DNA of 64,000 nt from Micromussa lordhowensis (Eukaryota; Cnidaria; Anthozoa; Scleractinia; Lobophylliidae): contig OZ026600.1 of NCBI GenBank assembly GCA_964020085.1, forward strand, positions 29,816,343 to 29,880,342, written 5' to 3'. The notes under the pieces are model-generated. The model was not told where the DNA came from, did no database searches, and was given only the letters and a program-made list of their open reading frames with translations. Below are positions 1-58,200 of the stretch, piece after piece. Position numbers and translations under genes: made by a program. The first letter of the stretch is position 1; every line of letters begins with the position of its first letter.

Positions 1-770
1 AGAGGACAGTCGTGAAATTTTGGATTTTTTCATATTTTGCTCAAATAACCTCTATAATGAGTTGTTTTCGAAAATACCATTCAAAGGTTCTAAAGCGCTT
101 TAATTTTTTCAAAATCGAGGAAAGTTCGAAAATCGCCATTTTAGCCTCCAGCCGCTACCGAAAATGGCGGAAAATTGTGCATTTTCTTTTCGCTCGTAAA
201 GATCAACGCGATAATATCTATCAATGTACTTTGGATATATAATAGTGCATGTCTTGGTGTTTCCAAAGCATTAATTTGATTTGGAAAAGCTTCTTTTTTT
301 ATAATATTTTACGGCGATCCAAATACCTTTATCGAAGCTCTTAAGCGGAAAGGCTAATTTTAGCTAATTTCAGTACCATCAAAAGCCCCCTGGTACATTG
401 AATTTGAAGTCGAAACTACAATTTTCTAAAAGCTGATATTCTATAGTATTTTGTGTAAAAGTTTCTTCCGCGGCCCGGGAAAAGTACCCTGTCGAGAGAC
501 ACCAACGTGAAGTACATTTTGGACCATTCGTCATGAGTAAAACGAGCATGGAACTTACACAGTGACTTTCATCAAGAACGAAAACAGGCAAATTGAAAAC
601 TTTTTCGTCATTTTGGATGCTTTAACCTTGTTATCACACAAGGTTATATTCCCTGTAGATAACAACATTAAAAAGTTTAGAAAAATTCGCAGTGAAATGA
701 AAATGTAGGCTGCGTTTGAATACATGTAATGTTATGCCAATTCTTCGAGTGAAACGAACATGGCCTTGAA
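1..770. repeat. Left terminal inverted repeat of the transposon
   Basis: Matches the reverse complement of ~9605-10374, including the segment around ACAAGGTTATATTCCCTGTA at ~640-657. Internally it contains partial direct repeats of a phrase with CGAACATGG (about 545 and 755). The inner boundary is approximate because similarity fades after ~770. Confidence 0.8.
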
Positions 771-1593
771 CAATAACGGAAATAGGCGAATGTAAATCTT
801 TTTCGTAATTTTGGATGCTTGTTTTAACATAAGGTGGTATGCCCTTTACATTAACAGCATCATTACACATCTTGAAGGCAGTTGGTGAATCTTGCTGGTC
901 TTTCATGCGGAACATACCATGGGGAGCATCCATCAGTCCTGCGACTGAAATAATTAATGCAGGTCAACATTTCATGCAAAGGTCATTGACAAGGTCAAAA
1001 ATTAATGTTATTCGACGACAATTAAATTTAACAACTGCTCATGCGACAATACGATTGTTTTTACCTACTATTAAAGTTCAACACATATATATTTTTGCGT
1101 AAGAACTAATCTGCTGAAAACGCACTGTTAAAACATTGCGTGACCATATGGCCAAACAATACAGTAATTTGTCGATGCCAAAAAATATTCTGGCGTTTTA
1201 AAACAACGTAGAATAAAACTGCTCTATATGAGGAAAACAGATTGCAATTTTTGGTTTCCTGACTTTAATGTTCAAGCTGCAAAACAGTTCAATATTTAGG
1301 AACAAACGGTAACTGAAAACAATTCAGTACAGCGGCGTGAAAAAGAAAATCGTCTATCTTATAGAAATCTCTGACTCTCCTTGCCGTGGTTACAATGGCT
1401 TCGTCTGGCGAAAAAAATCTAACAACTTACTGCAACGATTTCACGGTAATAAAGCTCACAGTGAGTAAACTGGACGAGCGCAGAAGTATACGAGTGACCA
1501 AACGTTCAAATACAGATTCCAAGCCCGTAACAGCCGTGATATGACTAACGTACAGTAAGGACTGGTGACTAGAGGTAAAAACGCTCCGTGCGT

Positions 1594-2503
1594 TCAAACT
1601 ATTATTGCAGAACAGGAGCAACTGCTAACGAGTTTTTGAAGGAGATCCACGTAAGGTGCTTTTCGTCTAACTTGCGGGGATGGTACGTGCAACTCCAGGC
1701 TCTCACAAAAGACTTGTAACAGCGCCACCTTCAGTTTCTTCACTGCCTTGCTCTTAACCAAAGCACAGATGTCGTATTGGTCAACGACGATAGGATGGCA
1801 GATTTGTAAGGACGATAGTACTGAGTCTCTCGCTAAACAGAAGTTCACTTGTTCTTCTACCGCAAGCACGTCATGATCCGTAACTGGCTGCTGACGTACC
1901 TTAGCTGCCATGCGTGAAAAAAAAAAGATATCTGCTGTGGGGACAAGAATTCCTCTACAAGAAATAACCTCTCCCCATCTATGGCACGAGCACGCTGCAT
2001 TTCTTTTGCGACAACTTCTGGATCCAGCCTTCTTCCGGAGGCCTGGCCGATGTTGAACTTGGCCTCAAGGTATGACTTCTGATTTTCGTTAAACCTCTCA
2101 ACCCTTTTCGCTTCTTTTAAAGCCCAGCCCTCACTGGCTTTCTGTTTGCAGCTCGATGAAACAGCTGAGCTCGGTACTTTGAGAGAGGGAAGAAGACACG
2201 CACCCTCCTGAAGGCGGCTGGCATACTGCTGCTTGGCTAAATCCAGCATGGAGTACTTCTCTGGTGACAGCTCGCAAGCTTCAAGAGATAAGTGTCGCTC
2301 CAGGGCAGACGACCGTTGAAAAACGCGAACACAGCCCTCCTGGGGGCAGGAATACACGGCTTTGTTGTAGATTGGTTCCTCTGGTTTTACGTGTACCACT
2401 TGCTCATCGCGTATGCGGGCTCTGATTGAGCTTGGCTGCCTTACGGTCACAGACTTAAAATCACCGTCTGAAAAAGGAACAGACAGCCAGCTGTAGTTCA
2501 CAT
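1594..2503 (-). pseudogene. Exon 5 of the transposase-like gene: C2HC zinc finger and C-terminal domain
   Basis: The acceptor ACACAG precedes GTGAACTACAGC. The zinc finger is CPQEGC, twelve residues, then HLSLEAC (C-X4-C-X12-H-X5-C). It is followed by a basic, helix-rich stretch (EGWALKEAKRVERFNENQ) and FLSPQQISFF. At that point the A-run at 1917-1926 throws the frame off by one. The next frame continues at once as SRMAAKVRQQ and runs on to a TGA ending at 1594. The continuing frame shows the lesion is a single indel. Confidence 0.65.
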
Positions 2504-3031
2504 CTGTGTAAAAAAGCAAAATAGTGCTTCAATTCGTCTTCCATCCCTATTTTAAAAAACTGAAAAAGTATTACCATTATTGTAAAATTACAAAATCCAT
2601 TAGGTACGAAAATAAATGCTAACTGGTAGCTGGCACGCGCGCGCCTCCTCTTCAGAGTATATTGGTCAAAGTATCTTACTTAATTCGAAAAACAATACAA
2701 GTTTTTGAAGATGGCACGTTTACAGTGGCTAACCGTGTAATGCCCCTCCATGCACAGTCACTTGCAGCAAGCTCTCTTTCATAAAATAATGTCATTTATA
2801 AAAGAAAAGGAGATCATTATCTCGTTTTTCTTACCATGCAATTTATATCTCTGCATGCGCACCGCAGTGTATGTCCAAAATCTACCAAAAATCAACGATA
2901 ATTTTCAATTTTCATAGAAACCCTCGCGTTATTGTTTTCAATCAGCAAATAAACAACAGTAACAGAACAATTTAAAGACTTTCAGATTTCCAATAGAACT
3001 CGCCTAGCGCGTGCTAATAATGCTATGGTAC

Positions 3032-3998
3032 CTGTAATTTTGTCTACCACACGCTTTCCTACGCCAATTCCATACGCTCTCCAAGCCAGTAGGTGGCCGT
3101 CTCTATACTGGAAATTGTTTAGTTTGCTGATTCCTGGGATTTTTTGCTGTTGCTGAACGTTTTCTTGCCCTTCCACAGCCGGCAGGACTGCTACTCGAAC
3201 ACCAGTGACTCCGTGAGAAAGTAATGCCTTCATGTCTTCTGCATTCGTAACATCGTGACCCTCATTGATGTACACACGAATATGCGATTTGCATGTAGCT
3301 GCTAACCTATCACAAGGGCCCTTACCACCCTGGGGATCACTGAAGTCAAAGCAAGCCACTTTAATGCCTGTGGAGTTTTCGATGAAAGCACAGGAAAGGA
3401 CGGTGCTGGCACAATGATAGCAACCGGCATTGTCCTGACAAAAATATGCAGTTGTTACCTCTGGGTGTTGGGACTTCAAAATGCTTAGCACATGCTGCAT
3501 CATCAAAACTACAGCTAAGCTGTCCTGACTGCAGGATTGAATAATGTGAAAAAAAGCCTGCGATTGCAGCTCCCCATCAATTCGTCGAAAAACCACAGCG
3601 ACGTGCCATGAAATTCCTCTTTTTCCAAACCAATCTTGTTGCGACTCTCGATATAGCTGCGGGAGGAATTTCATGGCCCAGTCATTAACTATCAACACGG
3701 TTTCTGGACTGAGCAGGTCTACGACATCGATCCGTGACCGACCCTGTCTCACTGACCGCAATTGGTGACTCTTCCACTCATGAATCGCTCTCTGTGCTTT
3801 TTCATAGAGGTACAGTGTCTCGTCTCTTTCTTCTTCGGATCGAAACGCCGCCTGGCCGATGTCTTTCAAGGCCGCGTTTATAGACTGACACTGGTCACAC
3901 TGCTCCTCGTGTTGGTGATCACAGTCTTGTTTGAAGACGGCCTTGTTTGCGTAAACACTGCAGTGGTCAGCCACCGTAGATTTACTATCAATATGCAC
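3032..3998 (-). pseudogene. Exon 4 of the transposase-like gene: DDE/RNase H-like core
   Basis: A 967-base open exon between an AAG acceptor and an ACAG/GTACC donor. Near the start it has a Cys/His cluster (CDHQHEEQCDQC). Next come VLIVNDWAMKFLP (candidate first Asp), DWFGKRGISWHVAVV (a beta-strand-like block), YFCQDNAGCYHC (candidate second Asp) and DFSDPQGGKGPCDR. NEGHDVTNAEDMK may supply the third acidic residue. The order Asp, Asp, acidic with hydrophobic strands fits an RNase H-like transposase fold, but this assignment is by eye and untested. Confidence 0.6.
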
Positions 3999-4061
3999 CT
4001 TGATATGAAACCAAAAAGCGCATTTACGTTACTACCTCCATCATTATGACCCTAAAAGAGT

Positions 4062-4080
4062 GGGGGGGGGGGGGGGGGGG
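4062..4080 (+). repeat. Poly-G run, 19 bases
   Basis: Nineteen consecutive G on the plus strand inside the third intron of the transposase-like gene. The run can form G-quadruplex structures and its exact length may be unreliable. Confidence 0.8.
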
Positions 4081-5892
4081 AGGTACAAGGGGTCAGAACC
4101 TCCCGCTTCCCGTACTCTGCCCTCCACTTCTTATCTCTCGCCTTTGTTTGTTTTTCTTGTCCCCTGTAGATAAGGGGACTCAAAATACATCCTAGTCATT
4201 TCGCTGCACAATGCTTAGGCGCTTCCGTTTCTTTTTTGCTTTCTTTTCAGCCTTGCTCCTGTTACTCACTTCTTTTAACAGCTTAAGTGACAACATTTCA
4301 TGACCTATGACGTGACCTCTGGAAATTGTTCCAACTTTATCAGAAGTAAACTCCTCAAATGCTCAACGCTTCCCGACCCCTCCCCCAACCCCCTCTCTAC
4401 TAAAGATCACCAATTTCGTCATTTTATTCATGTATTTATATAGCTTAATGCTAGATGAAATACCTTGTAATCTCCCTTTAGGTAGAGTTTTCCTGCCTTG
4501 AGAGAATCTTTCATCACAGTTTCCCAGTCCGAACCAACAGCTCGTAATAAGGAGATGTCGTGCACAATACACAGTAGATCTTCAAATGCTCGTGTTCCCT
4601 CGGCTGCGAAATAATCTAATCCCTGGAGAGACTTCCGAACAGATGCACTGCATTCCCTCAAAATCCTCAGCAGTGTACTGCGACTGAGTGCCTTGAAGTT
4701 GGTCTCGGTGCAAAACTGGATATACTAGGTTACAATACGTTCCGAAATCATCGTACTGATAACGTTTGCTACGGCTATTATCTCACCGGAAGAGAGCTCT
4801 AAATTCTTCTCGCCAAACGGCAGATCCTGCACAAGGTGTGGGCTGGTTATAAAACCAAGGAAATGATCCAGCTGTTGAAGGTCTATTTTGATTCGTGGTG
4901 CTTTCTGCGAAGGCACTGGAACACCTCGCCCATATTGCGTACGGTGGAGATTTGCCATGGTGTACCGATATCGTGTCAAGCCTGGTATAAAGTCAGAAAT
5001 GGCTCCAAAACTAGCCACTCCAGCCATGACTGATAGCACTTGTCGCCGGGTGTCCCAACTAGACGAATTTGAGTAAGCCTCTGCCATTGCTTGTAGATAT
5101 GCCCGTTCTGAAGGGAGAAAAGGCTGATGAGCACCTAGCTGCTGGTTTACCATACTGGAAAACTGTAGCGCGTTCCAAATTTTGGGCGCATTGACCGGGC
5201 AAATGACCCTAAGAACTGTCGAAACAATTTCACCAGATCTCTGTGTGTAGCGCTTCCGAGTTTTTGCATTAACTCTGTCCCAGTCTGTCCATGGCCGTCC
5301 GAGTGGTTGAATCTGACATTGGTTTAAGAGTGTATTTAAGGTTTCACGCGGCCCAGAAGAAGCCTTTGCAGCTGTTTCGTTACCATCTCCAGAGGAAGAT
5401 ACCGTACTGCCCGTTTCGGGGGAGAGAACGTAGCTGTCACCGGTCACATTACAATGCCCAAAACTGACTGCAAGCTCCTCGCACGAAGCACTTCCTTCGT
5501 CATTCTGGATGGAGAAAATTAAAAACACTTCACAGCTCAATTGTCATTCGATTTGCACCATCAGCATTATATAATCACATTGTTGAATAGTTGTTTCACA
5601 TTTTGCATTCCGGTATGACTAATGTAAGCACTCACCAGTTTCTGGGCGGGCGGATTGGGTAGTTCAGGACTGACTTTTAATTCTGCTGATTAGGTAGGCT
5701 GCTGCGGGCATGGAGGCGGGATGATCTCTGATTGGCAGGCAAGCTCAGTCAAGTGACTGGGGGGGTAAGATGCTTCAGTAGTGATTTGCAATACTTCTGG
5801 TGAAATAGGCTGCTGCTGGTATGGATCATCTAAAATGATCTCCGGTTGGGCAACAAGCTCAGTAATATGCTGTCGGCACCGCCTGCAGATGG

Positions 5893-7834
5893 CTTCAAGT
5901 AGAAGGAAATTTAAGAAGACCAATATCAGGCAAAGGAAAAATTGTAGTGATGCCACAGTTCCACATAGTGGTATGGTATGACGATGAACGAAAGATTGAG
6001 GAAATTTCGATTGTTACCCATTTTCAGAGATTAACATATTTTTATTGGCTTTCAGGATGGAGAAAGGAATCAAATAATATAAAGTCGCTCTTAAGGTGTC
6101 CTATTTTTCTAGCTGTCCCCGTATATAATCTAGTAAGTGACATTATATTCTATGCGCAAGCTTTCAGAGTTCTTAGGGAAACGCCAGGATAAGCACTTCT
6201 TCAGATAAACCTAGAGAAGGTTAAGGGTAAGAAAAAGATATTCGCTCAAAGGACTCTTAACGTGAGAGGCTTTGTGCCTAGTAGAAGGAGGGGCAGGGCT
6301 CTAGGTATAGGGTTTCCACGTTAAATCACCAGACCCCATAAGGGTCTTAATCAGGATGAACCCGGTCCTAACAGTCGCACGGTTTAGATCGAGACCCCCC
6401 AAAAGTTGTGTTTTCTAACTCCTGCTTTTTTAAAAACGATTTGACATCCATCTTTTGTTTTACATCATGCATATGTCTCGAAATGGGCAGACGGCATAAA
6501 GGAAGTCTCCTTTTATTTGCATTCATTTCCATGCTTTCCTTTGCAAGAAAGATGATCCCCCAATAGAGTTTCTCTCAGGGTAATCCCTCTTATGGGTCCC
6601 TCTCATGATCTTTTCGATCTCTCCTCAGAAATCGTGAGAGGGCCTAGACCGCCAATCACGTGACCAGATTTTACTAGGCGTTCGGTCAGTTGGCGGGGAA
6701 CAGTGCAAGCACAACTAATCGAACGCTTGTAAGGAGCTCACTATCTAACAAGAAAAAAATATATATACATACGCGACCCAACTGGAACAAGAATCTTTGC
6801 TGAGCGAAAGATGTAAGCGGACTGTACACTCTTAAGCCCACACTGGCCAGTGGATCCTGCGAGTCCATGGACTGCTATCGAAGAAGGAACAGTGCACCGT
6901 GTTCTGTTGCACCGCCAACGAATTCCAAACAAGTTGCGATGACGGGGACACACCGTAATTGTTAAATGAGACTCTTCAACTTCAAAAATGCCTAAAATAT
7001 TGTACAGGGAAATTGAGGGATGATTATAAAGGTCAAAGAGCTACACCAAATAAGGGCAGCAATTAGGGAATTTTTGACAAATAATCATTCAAATTATTTG
7101 TATTACTTGCAACAATAAGTCTGCACAACCAAAATAAGACATATTTCTACCCATATTTCTGATGAACATGATGAGGGGGAAGACCAGAATTTTGAGGAGG
7201 GACAAATAGCGCAAAAAACGCTGGGGGCGAGGGAGGAATAAGGGAATAAAGAAGGGAGGAGGGAGAAAAGGAAATCCTGGGAATTGGGGAGAATTGGATG
7301 GGCCTGGATGGGGAAACAATTTTATGCAATATTTAAAGTAGGGAGGAGGGAAAAATTGGCTCAAAACTATAAAGAAGAGAGAGTTACCCACCTGTTCCTC
7401 CCCGCCCGCTCTGAGTCGGCTTCCGAGTACAGTCGGTTATAATTTCTCTCTCTCTCTCTCTTGGAAAAGGGTTGAGGCCGCCAGGTCTGGCAGGATCACT
7501 AAGAAGTCTTAAAGGGTACTTACATAGATTTCATCTAGGTAGGAGTGCTGAAACTGCAATCTTCGTACAGATAAAGAATAACAATATTTTACTGCCTTAT
7601 GCGGTAGTTCGCCTTGACAATAGCCGTGGCTTTTGAAGGTAAAATTGAATTTTCAGCAAAGTTTTAGTTACAAATAAATTCTCGTCCTGGCAAAAACCGT
7701 TGTACAGGCATATAAAACTATTAAGTTTAACAGAAGGTAACAGAGTATGTAAACGCAACCCACGTATCTAAATTTTGGTGCCTTTTTAAGTTTTAGCCGG
7801 GGTTTAGTTAGGACTACAATGCAAAACACCCTAC
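5893..7834 (-). other. Intron 1 of the transposase-like gene
   Basis: Non-coding by my reading. It includes a purine-rich stretch (~7170-7370) and a short TC microsatellite (~7446-7461). The exon 1 and exon 2 phases match directly, so no further exon is needed here. Confidence 0.5.
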
Positions 7835-8021
7835 CTGCACGAGCAAGCAACAGTTTGGATTTACTGTCCACGCCAACATCGTCACTTACTTTACAAAACG
7901 TCAGATGACCATTCACTTCTTTTTTACACTGGCCGATTGTTATGCACTCCACGTTTGCGAGATTTTCTGAACTGGGGCCGCAATTACCACCGACCAAAGT
8001 CGAGTACTTACAAAACGCCAT

Positions 8022-8841
8022 GGCAGCGCACGTAATCGTGCTTCTCAAGAACCTAGCAGTTATTGGAATCTGCACTGCTTAGTATCTCGTAGTGCGATTG
8101 ACCGGACAACCTAGCTTTTTTGGTAAAATTCTCACAGAATTCGCCGCGCTAGGGAGAAGTCCCCAGGACTTTTCCCTGGGAAAAGTCCCTTTCAGAATTA
8201 ACATGAGGGGATTGGTTGTGGGGGATTGTCCCCTCATGTGTACCTGAGTACGACTAGCAAATGACGTAATACACTGGAACACTTCAAGGAATATTATGGT
8301 CCCTTAAACGTTTTATTCGAATCTATGTGCCATGCTAGGGAATAGGAAGCAAACTACTCATCTGCTTACGAAAGATGACCGAACAGAGTCAACTGTATCC
8401 GGCACAAGAATGGCAGGTCAAGGGTGAGAAATATATTTGTTGTTATTGTTTTGTTTTGTTTGTGTCAACTGCTCTGCAACTGCTCGCGCTTTGTTACCAT
8501 TACCTGGAAGTACCTGGTCACAGGAAACAAGATTTCAAGAATTGATCCGATGAGACTGTTATTTTTAAAGTAGAGTTAAAGTTTACTTAAAATGGTCATG
8601 ATCGAATATTTACTCCAAACATGATCGATGCAAATGTACGTCGGCTGTTGTTTACTCAAGCTTCATGTTTGAATACGCCTGGCAGGAGGGCAAGGTTTCA
8701 AATGAACTAAATACCCGATAGTCAGAAAGTTTCACAGAATTTCCTTTGAAAGATTCTTCAAACTTCTAGAGAGTATTGTTTCTTTAGAAATGTAGAGCGA
8801 TTCCAAAAATTGTGTTCGTTTGCAAGATGACGAAATGTCCG
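8022..8841. other. Transposon 5' region upstream of exon 1
   Basis: No gene seen. A short inverted-repeat segment at ~8150-8240 (words such as GGACTTTTCCCTGGGAAAAGTCC split over two arms) resembles the GGGACAAGTCCC-type MITE at 59608-59870. The rest is AT-rich sequence that would contain any promoter for the minus-strand gene. Confidence 0.35.
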
Positions 8842-9034
8842 GGACGTATACAAAACATGGACCGGGGTCCATGGACCACCCCATGGACCCAGTCCATGGA
8901 CCACCATGGACCACCCCATGGACCTGGTCCATGGACCGGGTCCATGGACCGGGTCCATGGGGTGGTCCATGGTGGTCCATGGACCGGGTCCATGGGGTAG
9001 TCCATGGACCCCGGTCCATGTTTTGTATACGTCC
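8842..9034. mobile_element. Foldback MITE of CCATGG-rich repeats with 9-bp target duplication
   Basis: Almost perfect palindrome. The ends are GGACGTATACAAAACATGG and its reverse complement, and the interior is built from GGTCCATGGACC modules. AAATGTCCG at 8833-8841 is repeated exactly at 9035-9043, the expected 9-bp target-site duplication. It has no coding capacity and is nested inside the larger transposon. Confidence 0.8.
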
Positions 9035-9043
9035 AAATGTCCG

Positions 9044-9604
9044 AGTCCGAGCATACTATAAAATCCGGCGGTATGTGCTTCATACTTTACATCGGCAGAT
9101 AGAGATATTTATCGGACTGTGACAAAAAGTGTCTTTTAAACTTAATGAGAAGATCCGATGTTCCGTTGGAATAGCCAAGTGAATTCTAAAAATTATTGTG
9201 GATTTGTAGTGGACGAATTCTTTAAGTTCCTTATATCCGACTGCCAGTCACAGTCTCAAATAGACTAAATGCCCGGCAGTCAAAATTGTTCACCAAATTC
9301 CAACAGAAAGTCTCGTTGAAACGTTTTGAGACTAATTGAAGATTGTTCGGAAATAAAAAACGAAGTTATTTTGGATTTGTAGTGGACAAATTCTCCGAGC
9401 TTTGTACATACTAAATTCGCCACGTTCTCGATTTTTGCTTGATCACACTGCCGGTCACGGTCTTCAGTACACAAAATATCCGGCAGTCAAAACGCTCGGA
9501 TCTTTCTCGAGAATTCCTCTGCTAAGAATCCAAACTATGTTTTCCAATAGCTTGGCATTTCCGAACAAACATCAGATACTCTCAATATTGATGAAAATCA
9601 CTGT
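9044..9604. other. Non-coding transposon interior before the right TIR
   Basis: No gene recognised. It holds three diverged direct repeats of phrases such as GACTGCCAGTCACAG and AATGCCCGGCAGTCAAA (about 9115, 9240 and 9450), a subterminal repeat pattern often seen near transposon ends. Confidence 0.4.
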
Positions 9605-10374
9605 TCAAGTTCCATGTTCGTTTCACTCGAAAAATTTGCATAACTTTACATGTACCCAAACGTAGCCTATATTTTCATTTTACTGCGAATGTTTCTAAAC
9701 TTTTTATTGTTGTTATCTACAGGGAATATAACCTTGTGTGAAAACAAGGTTAAAGCGTCCGAAATGACGAAAAAGTTTTCCATTCGTCTGTTTTCGTTTT
9801 TGATGAAAGTTACTGTGTAAGTTCCATGTTCGTTTCACTTATGACGAATGGTCCAAAATGTACTTCGCGTTGATGTCTCTTGACAGAGTACTTTTTCCGG
9901 GCCGCGGAAAAGACTTTCACACAAAATACTATAGAATACGGGCTTTAAGAAAATTGTAGTTTTGCCATCAAATTCAATGTACCAGTGGGCTTTTAGTGGT
10001 ATTGAAATTAGCTAAAATTAGCCTTTCCGCTTAAGAGCTTCGATAAAGATATTTGAATCGGCCTAAAATATTATAAACAAAGCAGCTTTTCCAAATCAAA
10101 TTAATGTTTTAGAAACACCAAGACATGCACTATCATATATCCAAAGTGCATTGATAGATACTATCGCGTTGATCTTTACGAGCGATAAGAAAATGCACAA
10201 TTTTCCGCCATTTTCGGTAGCGGCTGGAGGCTAAAATGGCGATTTTCGAACTTTCCTCGATTTTGAAAAAACTAAAGCGCCTTAGAACCTTTGAATGGTA
10301 TTTTCGAAAACAACTCATTATAGAGGTTATTTGAGCAAAATATGAAAAAATCCGAAATTTCACGACTGTCCTCT
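9605..10374. repeat. Right terminal inverted repeat of the transposon
   Basis: Inverted counterpart of 1-770. The outer end CACGACTGTCCTCT pairs with the first bases of the window. The bases after it (CATTCTCGC) cannot be compared because the left flank is outside the window. Confidence 0.8.
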
Positions 10375-10424
10375 CATTCTCGCTTCTTAGAGAAATTGGC
10401 TCTTAAGATTTAATTTGTCTTTAG

Positions 10425-17882
<7,458 letters not shown>

Positions 17883-37200: not shown

Positions 37201-40200
37201 CCAAGGTGAGGGAGACCCCACTAAACGCAGCCATCTCGCCAACTTCGCCGGGGAATCGAACCCCGCCTCACCAAAACACTCAAAAATTAAAGACACGAAA
37301 ACAGCTTCAGACCGAACTCAACACCGAGCATGTACAACGGAACCAGGGTAACAACTTAGCGAAACGCCCCAGAATACAGCTAGTATGAAGAAAAGGCTCA
37401 AAGATGGAAAACAAGTTCCCCACGACCAATAGAACAAACAACACCGGAGGCGCCCCACTGGCGCAAAAAGTAGCGCTTACGACGAGACGAGACAAAACGC
37501 TTGAAGAACAAAGGTAGGTAAAAACGTAAACGGGCTTTGAGAGCGGCGAGAAGGGCAACAGCCCCAGGTCGCGAGGACCGAAAACGGCAGTCATTCCGCT
37601 GAGACCAAACCAGAAATTTGAGTGAATGAAGCAGATAGACAAAAACCCGGGGGACGACAAGCAACTCGTCCGGACTAAAACCAAAAAGGACATGACGCAG
37701 CACAATAGGAGGGGAGAGAGGGGCAGCACAAAAGAGAAGGGATTGAATCCAGTCGATGCCGCTCTTTGCGAGAGGGCAGTGAAAAAACAGGTGCTCGGCT
37801 GACTCGAGATGAAAGCCACAGAAACAGGCAGCGGGGAGGCTATAACCAAAGGAAAGAAGGCGGTCCATGGTGAGGAGAGCACCATGGGACACTTTCCAAG
37901 CCAAATCAATCGCCTTGCGGTCCAGTGGCATAAGAAATAGCTGGGTCCACGTAGAGGACCAGTACAAGTCGCCAAAAACAGGACGAAACTTGCCAACACA
38001 GTGCGGAACAACATGTGAGAGGTCAAGAAGACGCGTGTAGGTGGATTTACAAGTTACAGCGGAAACCAAAACCCTAACACCAGAGAGGCCACTGATGGAG
38101 GGAGTGCCAGAAGGGGCAACAGAGCCACCAATGGCACACCAGGCCCGGAGCACAGCAGCATAGAAGGGGGGAAGTCGGCGAAGAGCAAAATTAAAAGGGG
38201 TGGACAGCAGGGTGACAGGGTCCACGCCAAACCGATCAAAACACCAGTAGGTCAACAGGGAGACCCAGGCGCTGGGAGAAGCAGCAAAGCGCTTGACCCA
38301 CTGAATCAAAAGGGCTTGGACTTTAAGATCAATGGCAACAACGGCAAAACCACCACAATCCCTAGGCTGAACAACAACTTTTCGACTAACTTTGTCCTTT
38401 TTACCAGCCCAGAAAAAGTTAAAAAGCAGAGTGTTAAGCTCACGAAGTACCCAATGCGGCATGTGAACGAGCGAGGCCACGTACCATATACGCGAAAGCG
38501 CCAAGGCGTTGGCCACAAGCGCACGGCCAGAAAAAGACAAGGAACGGATGCTCCAGGAAGCCAGACATTTGGTAACCGAATCAATGCGGGGTCGCCAGTT
38601 GGCCGAGTCGAGATCGCCAAACCCGATAAAAACACCAAGGACTTTGATCATTAGCTCCGACCAGTCAATGTTGACTGGAGAGTCGGGGCGAGCACGCCAG
38701 GCGCCAAGCCAAAGACCTTTACACTTCTCCAGATTTAATTTCGAGCCAGAAGCCTTCTCAAAACGGCTGTAGACCTCAAAAACAGCCTTGATACCACTGT
38801 CTGAATTCACAATGGCAGATGTATCGTCTGCATAAAGAGAGACGACAGGGAGAGGGGACGGGACGCCGGGCAAAAAGATCCCACAAATATGAGGATGTCC
38901 TCTGAGATTGACAGCAAGAACCTCCATAGTTAGAATGTACAAAAGGGGGGAGAGCGGACAGCCCTGCCTAACACCCCTAGAAGGAAAGAATACGGGCGTG
39001 CTGTAGCCATTAAACAGGACGCTACTACGGACGTTAGAGTACAAAAGACGCACCCATCTAATGAAAGAGGGGCCGAAACCCATGTGCTGAAGGGTGTGAA
39101 ACATAAATGCCCAATCGACTCGGTCAAATGCCTTCTCTTGGTCCAAGGAGAGGATGGCAGCCGGAATGTTAGACTCGCTGGTGTAGCTCACCAGATCACG
39201 AAGCAGCGAGACGTTCTCTCCGATAAAGCGGCCTGGAACTCCACAGGTCTGGTTAACATCAACAACATGATGAATTACACGAAGCAATCTGCCAGCCAGG
39301 GATCTTGCGCAGAGCTTGTAGTCAGCGTTGAGTAGGGTAATCGGTCTCCAGTTTTTGCGATCAAGTCTGTCCCCCTTCTTGAAGCTAAGGGAAATGAGGC
39401 CCTTACGCAAAGAGGAAGGGAGGCACCCAGTTTTATAAGAGGCGTTGAGGACGGACACCAAATCCTCACCAAGAACATCCCAGAATGCCCAGTAGAATTC
39501 AACAGGGAGGCCATCAGACCCAGGAGACTTGTTCTTGGCCATACCCTGAAGGGCCGTAAATACTTCTTGAGACGAAAAAACCCCTTCACATTGAGAAACC
39601 TCAGAGGATGGAAGGAAAGACCTAAGCATGTTAAGCATTTCAGCCTGAACCACAGAGTCAGTGGGCTCCGCCGTAAAGAGGGCGGAGTAAAAAGAGAGCC
39701 AGGCAGCAGAAATACCATCTTTGTCAACGGCGATCACATCGTCATCAGCCCGGATGGCAGAGATCCAACCAGTAGAACCATTTTTCTTCTCCAAACGGAA
39801 GAAAAAAGAGGAGGAAGTTTCTCCCTCCTCTGCCCAACGTACGCGGGAGCGCACCTTGGCCGAGAGGGCCTCGGCCTGTTCAAGCTCAGCCAGTTTAAGA
39901 AGCGTAGACTGGTAAACGTCAAAACAAGACATCAGGCCATCATCAATGCGCTTTTTAAGATGAGTGACAAGGGCAGTGAGAAGGGACCGGGAAGTCTCCC
40001 TGTCTCGCTTTTTGATAGAGCCAAAATGAATCGCAATACGCTTAATTTTCCGCTTGCCAATATCCCACCATTTTGAAAGGGAGGAAAAAAAACCCTTCCT
40101 CCGCTGCCATGACTTCCAGAAGTTACGGACTTCAGCACAAAATAAACTATCAGCTAAGAGGGAAGTATTCAACTTCCAGCGACCAGGGCCTCTAGGAATA

Positions 40201-43200
40201 ACCTCAGGAATCGGGAGCGAGAGGGAGACAATCGAGTGGTCCGAAAAGGGACAAGGACATATAAGGCAGGACGAGATAAATGGAGCCCAAGCAAAAGGCA
40301 CGCCAATAAGGTCAATCCTGGACTTGATGGAACCATCAGGTTTTGACCAAGTAAATGATTTGGCAGTCGGGTGACAGAGGCGCCAAGCATCTAGGACACA
40401 GCAATCGCGAAAAAGCCCGGACAAAAGAGCAGAACTCTCTCTACTGTAGTCGAAAGGGCAAGAGCCCCATCGATCCAAAGTACGGTCAAAAACAGAATTA
40501 AAGTCCCCGCACAAAAATGTGTGCACAGAGGGATCGATTTTGGCCAGAACAAAAGAGAAGAAATTATCCCGGTCTGGATTAACATTAGGGGCATACAAAG
40601 ACGCAACACGGAAAAACTTGCCACGGAAAGTGAAGTCACAGAGAACAAAACGACCCTCAGTGTCACAGAAAGACCCAGAAAGCGAAAAGGTGGGCCTGAA
40701 AAGAATGACAGTCCCTCTAGCATGATTGGAGCCAGGAGAAACAAAGGAACGATACCCAAAGGAATCAAACCAAGAAGAACCCTCAGCCGAAGTCAAGACA
40801 TGGACCTCTTGGAGGCAGACTATGTCAAGAGAGAGATGGCTGAGCCAATGCAAAAACCCCATCCTCTTGTTGCAATCACGTAGCCCGTTAACATTGATTG
40901 TGGCTATAGTCACAGCCATAATTAGACATTGTTGGAAGAAACAAGACTGTCATCAGAATCCAAAACAATTGCACGGGAGACAGACCGAGAGCGTGAACGC
41001 TCAATATTCACAGCAGGAGTGATTCTCCTTCTCCGCTGAGAAGGGGGAGGCGAGATCTGGACTTTAACCACAGAGGCGTAGGAAACCGCCCCAGCACCAT
41101 CCGAAGGGGCAGAGCCAGACGAGGACCCTTCAGAAAGCGAACGCTTCCGAGGGTTGACAGTGCCCATATCAACATCCGCAAGGGAGTCTGGAATGCTATC
41201 GCTATCATCAGCAGCGCCCAAACCACTCAAAATACTCTGCGACAGCTGACTAGGCTCACTAAGCTCGTTATCCCTAATATCAAGGGAGTCGCCAGTAACA
41301 ACGGAATCTTGGGGATCAGCATCCAAAAGAACAGAATCGGAAATAGAGGCAGGGCTCAACTCGGCCCCAGGATCACAGTTTTGGACCTCCTTTTGGGCCC
41401 CTTTTTCAGCCTCGTTTTGGACCTCATTTTGGACCACAATAACATTTTGGACCTCACTTTGGGCTTCATTTTGGACATCATGCACAGGATCCTCACCCGG
41501 AGGGTCGCCCACCGGGGGGTCCTGGGCATCAACAAAAGCACGATCACGAATGGGGCAATTGCGAGCAATGTGCCCCTCCCCTTTACACCTTAAACATTTC
41601 CCTTTATAGGGACAGGAAGCCGCCTTATGACCACCTTCGTTACAGATGTTGCACCGTATGGTCTGACCTCTATGCCAGAGGCGACAGTGGTAGCCACTAA
41701 TTGTGATGTACCGGGGCAATTCATCAACTTCCTCATGTAAGGTCATGCGAACGAGGCGCGACCCCGTGTAAATATCCATATCCTCATAGGGATGTTTTTG
41801 AAAGCGAAAGCTTTTAAAATCGCCAAAAACACCCAGTGCTTCAATAACAGGGTCCATCGGGCCTTCAAAAGGATAATCAAAGAGAACGACAGTAAGGATG
41901 GGGGAGCCACCACCATCAATTTTTATTTTCTCCTTACACACCTCAATGGAAGGTTTTTTGAGAGCCTCAGTCCGACCCTGTGGGGTCTCGAAAGCAACAC
42001 GAATATTATCATAGCCAAACTGCACAGAATCGACATGGCAGGGTTCGAAGGCCGAGATAATATCAATGATAACCTCACGACGGGGCTTAGACCTAAGCCT
42101 GTTACCAGGGAGGAGGGTGACAGTTTTCTCCCACATAATCGTGGGCGAGCTTAAAGTTAACTTAAGTATTCTTTCTTTAAGTAAACTCCGTTCAATAATC
42201 TTTCTTTAAATATTTCTCTTTAGATATTTCTTTATTTAAATATTACTTTCCTTAAATATTTCTTTCCTTAAATATTTCTTTCTTTAAATATTGCTTTCTT
42301 TAAATATTTCTTTCCTTGAATATTTCTTTCCTTAAATATTCCTTCTTCGAATATTTCTTTCTTTAAATATTTCTTTCCTTAAATATTTCTTCCTTAAATA
42401 TTTCTATCTTTAAATATTCCTTTCTTTAAATATTTCTTTCCTTGAATATTTCTTTCTTTAAATATTCCTACTTTAAATATTCTTTCTTTAGGTACTTTAC
42501 TTTAAATATTCCCAGTTAACAATATACTATCAATTAACTACACAATACAGTCCCAAAGGACACACCCTAATATAACAATATTATTAATAATAAGATAATT
42601 CACATGTACAGAAGGTACACGCTTCAACAAGGGCACAAAAGGAAGCGTGAGTCAGGTGCAGGTGAGTGAAAGATAGCAAAAACCGCGCGCGCGGGAAAAA
42701 CCAAGGAGTGGCGAATAAATTAGCACCAAGGCCAAGTTTGACTTTTGGCGCGCAAAATGCAAAATGGGCCGAACGCGAACCAAAAGGAGAAATCAAGACA
42801 CACAAATGACTGAAGCAAACGGGACAAAATCGAAAGCCAAACACGCGGGATACAAGCGAAAATCAGGGCACCGAAAGGGCCCAGCGAAAGCGGCACGACT
42901 AAAAGTCACGAGCGAGACGAGCCGCCTACGAAAACGGCAAAAACCAACAGAACGAAAAAATGTTCGGGCAAACCGAGCGATAGGCAAAACAAGCACTCAA
43001 CGGAATGACAGAATGACAAAATTGAGAGGGGGGAAAGGAATAAAAACCAGTTGACTAAAAGCAGACCAACAGATAGCGAAGGCAAAATTTAGAATTAAAT
43101 ATTCAAAAACGAGAAAAAATTCCAGAAACGAAGCACAATAGAAACACCTATTGAGTCGATGAACAAGGGCGCCAAAACAAAGCTCACTAATGAGGACACA

Positions 43201-52200: not shown

Positions 52201-55200
52201 AGCCGGATTCGAACCAGCGACCTAAGGATATCAATTCATCTCCTACAGTCCTCCGCTCTACCAACTGAGCTATCGAAGGAAGACGTACGATTTCAGTGGG
52301 TGGACGTTATTTCTTGCCAAACTGGTAGGATACAGGAAGAATTTACTAGATTCGATATTTTCCTTTCATAAGGTAACAAGAATACGAGTTTCTTGGAAAA
52401 CCTAATGAAAAGAGTTATGTATACTCAAATAAAATACTTTGAAAGTGGAACGGGCGAGCTGTATGTTAAGTTAAAAAAAGGAAAAAGATTCCTTCAAGCC
52501 GGATACGAACCAGCGACCTAAGGATATCAATTCATCTTCTACAGTCCTCCGCTCTACCAACTGAGCTATCGAAGGAAGGCGTATGCAATTACGATTTCAG
52601 TGGATAGAGGTTATTTCATGCCAAACTGGTAGGATTCAAGAAGAATTTCAGTACTAGATTCGATCTTTTCCTTTCATAAGGTAACAAGAATACGAGTTTC
52701 TTGGAAAACCTAATGAAAAGAGTTATGTATACTCAAATAAAATACTTTGAAAGTGGAACGGGCGAGCTGTATGTTAAGTTAAAAAAAGGAAAAAGATTCC
52801 TTCAAGCCGGATACGAACCAGCGACCTAAGGATATCAATTCATCTTCTACAGTCCTCCGCTCTACCAACTGAGCTATCGAAGGAAGGCGTATGCGTTAGG
52901 ATTTCAGTGGATACAGGTTACTTCCTGCCAAACTGGTAGGATTCAGGAAGAATTTACTAGATTCGATCTGTTCCTTTCATAAGGTAACATGAATACGAGT
53001 TTCGAGGAAAACCTAATGAAAAGAGTTCTGTACACTCAAATAAAATAATTTGAATGTGGAACGCGCCAGCTGTAGGTTAAGTTAAAAAAAAGAAAGAGAT
53101 TCCTTCGAGCCGGTTTCGAACCAGCGACCTAAGGATATCAATTCATCTGCTATAGTCCTCCGCTCTACCAACTGAGCTATCGAAGAAAGGCGTGTCATTA
53201 ACGATTTCAGTGGTTGGACGTTATTTCTTGCCAAAGTGGTAGGATTCAGGAAGAATTTACTAGATTCGATCTTTTCCTTTCCTAAGGTAACAAGAATACG
53301 AGTTTCTTGGAAAACCTAATGAAAAGAGTTATGTACGCTCAAATAAAATACTTTGAAAGTGGAACGCGCGAGCTGTAGGTTAAGTTAAAAGAAAGAAAAA
53401 GATTCCTTCGAGCCGGATTCGAAGCAGCGACCTAAGGATACCAATTCATCTTCTACAGTCCTCCGCTCTACCAACTGAGCTATCGAAGGAAGGCGTATGC
53501 CGTTACGATTTCAGTGGGTAGACGTTATTTCTTGCCAAACTGATAGGATTCAAGAAGAATTTACTAGATTCGATCTTTTCCTTTCATAAGGTAACAAGAA
53601 TACGAGTTTCTTGGAAAACCTAATAAAAAGAGTTATGTACACTCAAATAAAATACTTTGAAAGTGGAACGCGCGAGCTGTAGGTTAAGTTAAAAGAAAGA
53701 AAAAGATTCCTTCGAGCCGGATTCGAACCAGCGACCTAAGGATATCAACTCATCTTCTACAGTCCTCCGCTCTACCAACTGAGCTATCGAAGGAAGGCGT
53801 ATGCCGTTACGATTTCAGTGGGTGGGATTCAAGAAGAATTTACTAGATTCGATCTTTTCCTTTCATAAGGTAACATGAATACGAGTTTCTAGGAAAACCT
53901 AATGAAAAGAGTTATGTTTACTCAAATAAAATACTTTGAAAGTGGAACGCGCGAGCTGTAGGTTAAGTTAAAAAAAAAGAAAAAGATTCCTTTGAGCCGG
54001 ATTCGAACCAACGACCTAAGGATATCAATTCATCTCCTACAGTCCTCCGCTCTACCAACTGATCTATCGAAGGAAGGCGTATGCAATTACGATTTCAGTG
54101 GATAGACGTTATTTCATGCCAAACTGGTAGGATTCAAGAAGAATTTACTAGATTACATCTTTTCCTTTCTTAAGGTAACATGAATACGAGTTTCTAGGAA
54201 AACCTAATGAAAATAGTTATGTATACTCAAATAAAATACTTTGCGAGTGGAACGCGCGAGCTGTAGGTTAAGTTAAAAAAAAGAAAAAGATTTCTTCGAG
54301 CCGGATTCGAACCAGCGACCTAAGGATATCAATTCATCTTCTACAGTCCTCCGCTCTACCAACTGAGCTATCGAAGGAAGGCGTATGCAATTAAGATATT
54401 TCATGCCAAAGTGGTAAGACTTAAGAGGAATTAACTAGATTCGATCTTTTCCTTTTATAGGGTAACGAGAATACGAGTATCACGGAAAACCTATTGTACA
54501 GAGTTATGTATACTCAAATAAAATAATTGGAAAGTGGAACGCGCGAGCTGTAGGTTAAGTTAAAAAAATAGAAGGCCTATGCAATTACGATATCAGAGGG
54601 TAGCCCTTATTTCATGCCAAACCGGTAATATTCAAGAGGAATTTAGTAGATTCGATCTTTTCATTCTGAACGGTTACAAGAATACGAGTTTCAAGGAAAA
54701 CCTTGTGAAAAGAGTTATTTATACTAAAATAAAATACTTTGTAAGTGGTATGCGCGAGCTGTGGGTTACGGTTAAAAAAAGAAAACGATTCCATCGAGCC
54801 GGATTCGAAACAGCGACCCTAGGATATTAATTCATCTTCTACAGGCCTTCGCTCTACCAACTGAGCTATCGAAATAAGGCGTATGCCGTTAAGATATCAT
54901 AGGGTAGACAGTATTTCATGCCAAACCCGTAAGATTGAAGAGGAATTTGCTAGATTCGATCTTTTCCTTTGATAAGGTAACTAGAATACGAGTTTCAAAG
55001 AAATCGAAGTGGAAAGAGTTATGAATACTAAAATAAAGTGGAACATGCGTGCTGTCGGTTACGTTAAAGAAAGAAAAAAATTCCTTTCTGCGGGATTCGA
55101 ACCATCGACCTCAGGATAACAACTTCGCCTCTACAGTCCTCCGCTCTACCAACTGAGCTTTCGAAGGAACACGTTATCTGGATGTATTAAATTGCGTCAC

Positions 55201-58200
55201 GTGAAATTGATGAGCTACACCAGTGAGTCTAACATTCCGGCTGCCATCCTCTCTTTGGATCAAGAGAAGGCGTTTGACCGAGTCGATTGGGCGTTTATGT
55301 TTCACACCCTTCAACGCATGGGTTTCGGCCCCTCTTTCATTAGATGGGTGCGTCTTCTGTACTCTAATGTCCGTAGTAGCGTTTTGTTTAATGGCTATAG
55401 CACGCCCGTATTCTTCCCTTCTAGGAGTGTTAGGCAGGGCTGTCCACTCTCCCCCCTTTTGTACATTCTGACTATGGAGGTTCTTGCTGTCAACCTCAGG
55501 GGACATCCTCATATTTGTGGGATCTTGTTGCCCGGCGTCCCGTCCCCTCTCCCTGTTGTTTCTCTTTATGCCGACGATACGTCTGTCATCGTGAACTCAG
55601 ACAATGGTATCATGGCCGTTTTTGAGGTCTACAGCCGTTTTGAGAAGGCTTCTGGATCGAAATTAAATCTTGAGAAGTGCAAAGGTCTTTGGCTTGGCGC
55701 CTGGCGTACCCGCTCGGACTCTCCAGTCAACATTGACTGGTCGGAGCTGATGATCAAGGTCCTTGGTATTTTTATCGGGTTTGGCGATCTCGACTCGGCC
55801 AACTGGCGCCCCCGCATTGATTCGGTTACCAAATGTCTGGCTTCCTGGAGCATCCGTTCCTTGTCTTTTTCTGGCCGTGCGCTTGTTGCCAACGCCCTGG
55901 CGCTTTCGCGCATATGGTACGTGGCCTCGCTCGTTCACATGCCGCACTGGGTACTTCGAAAGCTTAACACTCTACTTTTTAACTTCTTCTGGGCTGGTAA
56001 AAAGGACAAAGTTAGTCGGAAAGTTGTTGTTCAGCCTAGGGATTGTGGTGGTTTTGCCGTTGTCGCCATCGACCTCAAAGTCCAAGCCCTTTTGATTCAG
56101 TGGGTCAAGCGCTTTGCAGCTTCTCCCAGTGCCTGGGTCTCCCTGTTGACCTACTGGTGTTTTGATCGGTTTGGCGTGGACCCTACCACCCTGCTGTCCA
56201 CCCCTTTTAATTTTGCTCTCCGCCGACTTCCCCCCTTCTATGCTGCTGTGCTCCGGGCCTGGTGTTCCATTGGTGGCTCTGTTGCCCCTTCTGGCACTCC
56301 CTCCATTAGTGGCCTCTCTGGTGTTAGGGTTTTGGTTTCCACTGTTACTTGTAAATCTACTTACGCGCGCCTTCTTGACCTAACACATGTTGTTCCGCAC
56401 TGTGTTAGCAAGTTTCGTCCTGTCTTTGGTGACTTGTACTGGTCCTCTACGTGGACCCAACTATCCTTTATGCCACTAGACCGCAAGGTGATTGATTTGG
56501 CCTGGAAAGTGTCCCATGGTGCTCTTCTCACCATGGACCGTCTCCTTTCCTTCGGTTATAGCCTCCCCGCTGCTTGTTTCTGTGGCTTTCATCTCGAGTC
56601 AGCTGAGCACCTATTTTTCCACTGCCCTCTTGCTAAGAGCGGTATCGATTGGATCCAGTCCCTCCTCCTTCGGGCTGCCCCTCTTTCCCCTTCTATTGTG
56701 CTGCGTCACGTTCTTTTTGGTTTTAGTCCGGATGAGTTGCTTGTCGTTCCCCGGGTTTTTGTCTATCTGCTCCACTCACTCAAATTTTTGGTCTGGTCAC
56801 AGCGGAATGATTGTCGTTTTCGGTCCTCTCGTCCTGGGGCTGTTGCCCTTCTCGCTGCTCTCAAAGCCCGCTTGCGTTTCTACCTTCCTTTGTTTTTCAA
56901 GCGTTTTGTCTCGCCTCGTCGTAAGCGCTATTTTTTGCGCCACTGGGGCGCCTCCGGTGTCGTTTGTTCTACTACTTGTGGGGAGCTTGTCTTCCATCTT
57001 TGAGCCTTTTCTCCATATTAGCTGTATTCTGGGGCGTTTTGCTAAGTTGTTAACCTGGTTCCGTTGTACATGCTCGGTGTTGAGTTCGGTCTGAAGCTGG
57101 TTTCGTGTCTTTAATTTTTGAGTGTTTTGGTGAGGCGGGGTTCGATTCCCCGGCGAAGTTGGCGAGATGGCTGCGTTTAGTGGGGTCTCCCTCACCTTGG
57201 CTGCCTAGTCACTTGGATTGCACACCCCTCCTTGTTGACTAGTGCTTATCTATGGGTGGTGAGCATTGCACTCCCCGCTCACTACTCCGCCAAAATAAAA
57301 AAAAAAACGAGCTAGCATCTTTTTACTTGAATTTACTTATTTTAGATCCAAAGAGTTTTCAATTAGGCGTCGTAAGTGACCACCACCAGTGTCACCACTC
57401 TAGACAATCGAAACTTGAAGTAAATATTTGTAGCTGTCGGAAAGTGCGATAAAGGTATGCGAACGGGTCACAATATTGGTTTGATTTTATTTAGGATTGC
57501 ATGAAATAGAGGCGCGAATTTTTGCTGCGCAGCGAGCGTAGCGACATAAACAGGATTTTAGAAGAATATATAGAAGGGGATACGAATTCTCGAATTCATT
57601 ACTTTTTACCAGAATGCATTGCATTTAACCAGAATGCACTGCGTCACTTTTTACCAGAGTGCATTGCGCCACGAACAACACGATTATCTCACACCGTCGA
57701 GCCGCCGTCTTAATTCGCGTAGATTTCAGTGAGAAAGACAAGTGATTTGTTTTGCTCTGATTTACCTGTGAAACGATGTGAAGGAGATCGTGCTTGACTT
57801 TCACAACTCTTGCTTTTGTCCTTAATGCAGTAAGTGAAAGTATGTAAATCTGGATGATTAATTGTGACATCTTAATTTTAACTTAGTATGTCATTTCAGT
57901 TCTTAGCAGTCTCGCCTCCTTGGTCGAATTCGTAAATGAAGAGAAATCGTCGTTACTTAAGCTTGTAGAATAATTAAAAATACGAAAATCGTACAACACG
58001 CTAATTTCATATATGCTGCGATCTATTCATCCAAACATGAATTTAAGCTGAAGCGTTAGCATTTTCACACATCGCGATGGACGCTTCCTCGGCACAGTCT
58101 GTCAACATTTTTGTAAATCTGGATGATTAATCTTAACTTTAGTATATCATTTCTTAGCAGTCTCGCCTCCATGGTGGAAGAGAAATCGTAATTACTAAAG

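What the first reader, a model, noticed from the sequence alone, without database searches (positions are those of the whole stretch)
1..10374. Large TIR transposon with a multi-exon DDE-like gene, possibly an undescribed superfamily
Arms of ~0.75 kb enclose one five-exon gene of ~1120 codons. The protein order is a Cys-rich N-terminus, a conserved middle region, a DDE-like core (NDWAMKF, QDNAGCYH, SDPQGGKG), a C2HC finger and a C-terminal helical domain. I do not recognise this combination as a named superfamily. I recall relatives as unnamed predicted proteins in cnidarians and fish.
Basis: partly seen in the sequence, partly recalled or inferred. Interest (0 to 1): 0.75.

Follow-up and report, generated by a model that had tools for sequence, protein, structure and literature searches.

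The report
TTAA-targeting transposon, likely Sola3 type
This is one copy of a large DNA transposon whose gene matches at least 116 places in its host genome and whose ends sit in duplicated TTAA; it likely moves by cut-and-paste and likely belongs to the known Sola3 group rather than to a new superfamily.

Summary
The element is real: 10,430 bp, with inverted arms of about 800 bp (92.8% alike), its left end 27 nt before the window. TTAA flanks both ends here and in 6 of 6 other paired copies of its subfamily. A repeat that carries one of these insertions is uninterrupted at 19 other places; the 4 read hold a single TTAA, so TTAA is the target duplication. The gene is predicted to have six exons (1,193 codons), not five, and this copy is broken (two stops, one frameshift). 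Named relatives are cnidarians, lancelets, a crinoid, molluscs, a nemertean and rotifers; no Pfam model reached its cut-off in 14 sequences. The core is modelled as an RNase H fold with an invariant D-D-D triad (59 of 59). Kolobok, Dada, hAT, P and MuDR are disfavoured (their C/DxxH motif is absent in 59 of 59), piggyBac by termini and profile. A DDD transposase with a 4-bp TTAA duplication fits Sola3 as recalled from Bao et al. 2009; no Sola sequence was at hand, so membership is likely but unproven. An undescribed superfamily is not established.

The parts
1..773 (+). Left terminal inverted repeat (part inside the window; another 27 nt plus the left TTAA lie upstream, at G000:C6:29816311-29816342)
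   Evidence: 800 vs 801 nt, 92.8% identical to the right arm
9602..10402 (-). Right terminal inverted repeat, ending ...GGCTC
10403..10406 (.). Right copy of the TTAA target duplication
   Evidence: uninterrupted-site test of a sister insertion
7835..8021 (-). Exon 1 (predicted), Cys-rich N-terminus
   Evidence: colinear with P0002
6773..6991 (-). Exon 2 (predicted), CPxHR-containing Cys-rich part
   Evidence: colinear with P0002
5636..5892 (-). Exon 3 (predicted), CxxC motif; holds an in-frame stop in this copy
   Evidence: that stop is absent from the C2 copy
4464..5504 (-). Exon 4 (predicted), conserved middle region, mostly helical in the model of P0002; holds an in-frame stop in this copy
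3032..3998 (-). Exon 5 (predicted), Cys/His cluster (HC..C.H.H...C..C) and RNase-H-fold core with D106, D189, D230
1594..2503 (-). Exon 6 (predicted), CCHC finger, homeodomain-like three-helix segment, SAP-like C-terminus; frameshift in a run of T in this copy
8842..9034 (.). Near-perfect palindrome of CCATGG/GGTCC units inside the element, role unknown

Best explanation
A 10.4-kb DNA transposon, bounded by 0.8-kb inverted repeats and duplicated TTAA, carries a broken gene (predicted six exons) for a transposase that would move such elements by cut-and-paste with a predicted RNase-H-fold D-D-D active site, and it likely belongs to the Sola3 group. Shown: ends at 5'-GAG...CTC-3', TTAA on both sides, a single TTAA at uninterrupted sites of a sister insertion, sister insertions with unrelated flanks, invariant D-D-D. 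Predicted: the fold, the exon joins, the zinc-binding, homeodomain-like and SAP-like parts. Inferred: these parts hold the arms; the core cuts at the GAG ends; the free ends join TTAA with a 4-nt stagger; gap filling duplicates TTAA. This copy likely makes no working transposase but keeps both ends, so a sister element could move it.
Against: No Sola transposase sequence was available here; that Sola3 has a DDD transposase and TTAA is recalled from Bao et al. 2009, which is not held. One insertion, on C15, has TTAA on one side and TAAA on the other. No experiment shows excision or integration. The splice sites are not supported by RNA. Foldseek alone gave weak matches: best E 3.2e-4 with TM 0.26/0.35 to a herpesvirus terminase nuclease, the mariner Mos1 transposase fourth at E 8.5e-4, and again a terminase first among viral models. 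The row that scores for SAP is 1jjr, labelled thyroid autoantigen (recalled to be Ku70); rows labelled Ku70 reach only E 0.8. A profile comparison with DUF7869, which shares motif order by eye, was not significant (probability 9.4% for the whole exon, 0.1% for the core alone; five shuffled controls, run with the core alone, 0.1-0.7%).
Confidence: 0.75

Rival explanations
1. The element belongs to an undescribed superfamily of TTAA-specific transposons, separate from Sola3, Kolobok and piggyBac.
For: No Pfam model reaches its cut-off in 6 window pieces and 8 full relatives; Kolobok and piggyBac fail defining features. Long arms and a Cys-rich, CCHC, homeodomain-like and SAP-like layout.
Against: The combination DDD plus TTAA is what is recalled for Sola3. 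The family is multi-copy and has proteins named from Nematostella and Branchiostoma, genomes that Repbase curators are recalled to have covered, so it has probably been catalogued.
Confidence: 0.17
2. It is a divergent Kolobok-like element.
For: TTAA duplication and 5'-RR...YY-3' ends (GA...TC), both given for Kolobok in PMC9587614 (passages); cnidarian hosts.
Against: The C/DxxH motif between the second and third catalytic residues, shared by Kolobok, hAT, P, MuDR and Dada, is absent in 59 of 59 rows, where 37-40 residues separate them; the third residue is D, not E.
Confidence: 0.05
3. It is a piggyBac-type element.
For: TTAA duplication; a DDD triad (recalled for piggyBac); piggyBac elements are known from corals (PMC2872659, passages).
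Against: Ends are GAG, not CC[C/T]T as given for piggyBac in PMC2872659; no piggyBac transposase profile among Pfam matches at E<=1 in 14 sequences.
Confidence: 0.02

Closest known systems
Sola superfamily, group Sola3 (Repbase; Bao et al. 2009, recalled)
   Same: 4-bp TTAA target duplication and a D-D-D transposase in animals (Sola3 features recalled; those of this element)
   Different: No sequence comparison was possible; terminal letters and arm lengths of Sola3 could not be checked
Kolobok
   Same: TTAA duplication, RR...YY ends
   Different: No C/DxxH motif; third catalytic residue D at short spacing
piggyBac
   Same: TTAA duplication
   Different: GAG ends instead of CC[C/T]T, no piggyBac profile match
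Retroviral integrase catalytic core (fold only)
   Different: 10% sequence identity; D-D-D rather than D-D-E (the latter recalled); different accessory parts
DUF7869 (PF25273)
   Same: Motifs DN, then GHTK..PDR....K and a later K(L/I)P.I...F.F in the same order by eye; also repeated in this genome, 167 matches
   Different: Profile comparison not significant

Membership tests
Sola3 | 4-bp target duplication, TTAA (recalled) | tested here: met
   10 of 11 independent paired insertions have TTAA on both sides; uninterrupted sites hold one TTAA, 4 of 4 read
Sola3 | D-D-D transposase (recalled) | tested here: met
   D106, D189, D230 in 59 of 59 rows; positions fit the RNase H fold
Sola3 | significant transposase similarity to named Sola elements | not testable with these tools
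   No sequence labelled Sola turned up in the libraries searched; Bao et al. 2009 not held
Sola3 | terminal letters of the group | not tested
   Ends here are 5'-GAG; no passage read gave the Sola3 termini
Kolobok | TTAA duplication | tested here: met
   feature from PMC9587614
Kolobok | 5'-RR...YY-3' termini | tested here: met
   GA...TC
Kolobok | C/DxxH between second and third catalytic residues | tested here: not met
   0 of 59 rows
piggyBac | TTAA duplication | tested here: met
piggyBac | CC[C/T]T terminal motif (PMC2872659) | tested here: not met
   ends are GAGCC, GAGCG or GAGTC, one GGGCC and one GAGCT
piggyBac | piggyBac transposase Pfam profile | tested here: not met
   not among matches at E<=1 in 14 sequences
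Dada | DxxH motif and 6-7 bp duplication (PMC3706591) | tested here: not met
   0 of 59 rows with the motif; duplication is 4 bp
Academ | 3-4 bp (AcademX) or 9-10 bp (AcademH) duplication with an added nuclease or helicase (PMC10045372) | tested here: inconclusive
   4 bp fits AcademX, but no nuclease or helicase profile reached a cut-off in the pieces scanned; no Academ sequence at hand

The most novel reading that the evidence does not exclude
This is the founder of a separate superfamily of TTAA-specific transposons, spread through cnidarians, lancelets, a crinoid, molluscs, a nemertean and rotifers, with 0.4-0.9 kb arms, an integrase-like D-D-D core with about 82 and 40 residues between the catalytic D, and a layout of Cys-rich N-terminus, CCHC finger, homeodomain-like part and SAP-like end not seen together in a named transposase.
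Probability: 0.17. Interest if true: 0.6.

Novelty: new member of a known kind. Interest (0 to 1): 0.3.

Why it matters
Dozens of proteins deposited as 'uncharacterized', 'hypothetical' or 'predicted' in animal gene sets are relatives of this transposase (named rows among the 120 listed). No Pfam model reached its cut-off in the 6 window pieces and 8 relatives scanned, so such proteins can pass as host genes. The layout given here (end sequence, TTAA, triad, order of parts) lets them be filtered, and gives an entry point for testing a TTAA-specific transposase other than piggyBac, a widely used gene-delivery tool (recalled).

Tried and rejected
Prokaryote collection: one locus, in Noviherbaspirillum, 24% identity; read it lies inside an unrelated long membrane-protein-like frame, so I take it as chance. 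Viral contigs: 22 pattern matches, none a relative by tblastn. Pfam on short C-terminal segments: homeodomain E=0.051 in one of three segments and SAP E=0.0048 in one of two, both below their cut-offs; the homeodomain-like alignment found nothing in solved structures up to E=1, the SAP-like one found 9 rows. The profile also drew U-box/CHIP chains (E 0.0036 and 0.0078), taken as chance. Foldseek ranks a herpesvirus terminase nuclease first with poor superposition (viral models alike); VIA-align gives integrase cores. For the full-length model the matches span mainly residues 612-878, so the other parts were barely tested. The DUF7869 link was tested and is not significant. CMITE elements of corals share TTAA but are tied to piggyBac (PMC2872659). 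Papers: in ten searches no listed title or abstract describes this element, and no passage read gives Sola3 termini; this library lacks most subscription papers. Not held: Bao 2009, Yuan and Wessler 2011, the AcademH paper. Read as passages: PMC9587614, PMC10045372, PMC3706591 (abstract too), PMC10799480, PMC8634313, PMC5199201, PMC4455052, PMC10294476, PMC9976928, PMC11071193, PMC8230255, PMC2872659, PMC12220107.

Full report
What is there. Inverted arms at window 1-763 and 9612-10374 are 93% complementary. The window lies at G000:C6:29816343-29880342 of a 580.8-Mb genome in 1,383 contigs. With the upstream DNA (L010) the left arm extends past the window: the element runs from 27 nt before base 1 to base 10402, 10,430 bp, arms 800/801 nt at 92.8% identity.

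Target duplication. The outer 122 nt of the arm match 40 places (of 89 candidates). Six inward-facing pairs, 5.7 to 13 kb apart, were read at both ends: TTAA flanks both ends in 6 of 6, with unrelated flanks, and also here. Eight of 8 single ends also show TTAA; one of them shares its flank with a pair and is not independent. In more divergent subfamilies TTAA is on both sides at C1a, C3 and C6b; C1b and C1c share the flanks of C1a and were not counted. For C6b the ends were first misplaced by an outer repeat and set right. C15 shows TTAA on one side and TAAA on the other; its two copies are mirror duplicates of one insertion and were counted once. So 10 of 11 independent paired insertions have TTAA on both sides. 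No arms were found around the C957 copy, and C8 was fetched on one side only. Because TTAA is its own reverse complement, flanking TTAA alone cannot tell a duplication from part of the arm. The uninterrupted site can: the joined flanks of the C2 insertion match 19 other places over positions 1-124, 17 of them at 97-98% with no change in length, while the filled site matches in two halves that both include TTAA. In 4 of 4 of those sites held, one TTAA stands there without a gap. Element ends are therefore 5'-GAG...CTC-3' (GAGCC, GAGCG or GAGTC by subfamily; one end GGGCC, one GAGCT). The same test for the window's own insertion got no answer.

Copies. Exon 5 has 116 scored matches of 494 candidates. 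A 98% copy on C2 runs from its left end almost to the right end, where an assembly gap begins. Five of the six paired sister insertions overlap none of the 116 scored matches and are 5.7 to 7 kb long, so they look non-autonomous; the sixth (C2:43388342-43401393) holds an exon-5 fragment.

Gene. Splice signals and reading frame give six exons on the minus strand: 8021-7835, 6991-6773, 5892-5636, 5504-4464, 3998-3032, 2503-1594, colinear with the Oculina protein P0002. The third donor was placed by eye on its splice signal and phase; an earlier donor would leave out the exon-3 stop. This copy has stops at residues 203 and 481 and a frameshift in a run of T at residue 1086. The exon-3 stop is absent from the C2 copy, the frameshift is shared with C2 but not with C15, and C2 and C15 carry breaks of their own. 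No intact copy of this subfamily was among those read; in other subfamilies many exon-5 frames are open.

Relatives. 165 proteins at E<=0.01 (120 listed, many without a name), best 64% identity (Oculina); named rows also include Actinostola, Exaiptasia, Nematostella, Paramuricea, Stylophora, Porites, Montipora, Branchiostoma, Antedon, Mytilus, Pinctada, Crassostrea, Saccostrea, Patella, Lineus, Adineta and Rotaria. A profile search gave 680 at E<=0.001 (120 listed; only the 7,994 candidates sharing most words were scored). No fish is named in the listed rows. No Pfam model reached its cut-off in 6 window pieces or 8 relatives. A few listed relatives carry other domains in fusion, such as RING or reverse transcriptase.

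C-terminal parts. A C2H2-type finger is recognised in solved structures (best E 6.3e-7). After it comes a segment with three predicted helices in P0002 and a weak homeodomain match in one of three sequences (E=0.051; no match in solved structures), and a SAP-like end (best row 1jjr, thyroid autoantigen, recalled to be Ku70, E=5.4e-5; DEK 0.019). These are predicted DNA-binding parts.

Which family. Known TTAA-specific groups are piggyBac and Kolobok (PMC9587614, passages) and Sola3 (recalled from Bao et al. 2009). piggyBac has CC[C/T]T ends (PMC2872659) and fails here. Kolobok, with hAT, P, MuDR and Dada, has C/DxxH between the last two catalytic residues, absent in 59 of 59 here. Sola is recalled as a DDD transposase with 4-bp duplications, Sola3 with TTAA. 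That fits, but no Sola sequence could be compared. I therefore file it as likely Sola3, not as proven.

How it would work. Inferred: the transposase binds the arms through its zinc, homeodomain-like and SAP-like parts, the D-D-D core cuts at the GAG ends and joins them to TTAA with a 4-nt stagger, and repair duplicates TTAA. This copy would depend on a sister element for movement.

Noticed in passing
window 24321-54780: Long tandem arrays of about 305-bp units, two of which ARAGORN reads as tRNA-Leu-like.
   Followed up: no
window 37398-42205 (minus) and 55120-57003 (plus): A non-LTR retrotransposon (endonuclease plus reverse transcriptase frame of 1,183 aa and a CCHC protein frame, named by eye) interrupts the tRNA-like array, and a second partial copy in the other orientation lies just after the array. 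It might target the tRNA-like repeat.
   Followed up: no
window 10391-16125: Frames with EGF-like and LDL-receptor-like repeats (named by eye) flank the element on its right, so it may sit in an intron of a host gene.
   Followed up: no
G000, 167 matches: DUF7869 (PF25273) is a highly repeated gene family in this genome and shares motif order with the present core by eye; it may be another unlabelled transposase.
   Followed up: partly
G000:C15:7541900-7570575: Two copies of the element lie as mirror images in a nearly identical inverted duplication of at least 17 kb per arm.
   Followed up: no
G000:C1:8359001-8431000: C1 holds four near-identical copies of a 50% subfamily; the three read at their ends (C1a, C1b, C1c) share the same flanks, that is, a segmental duplication rather than separate insertions.
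   Followed up: partly
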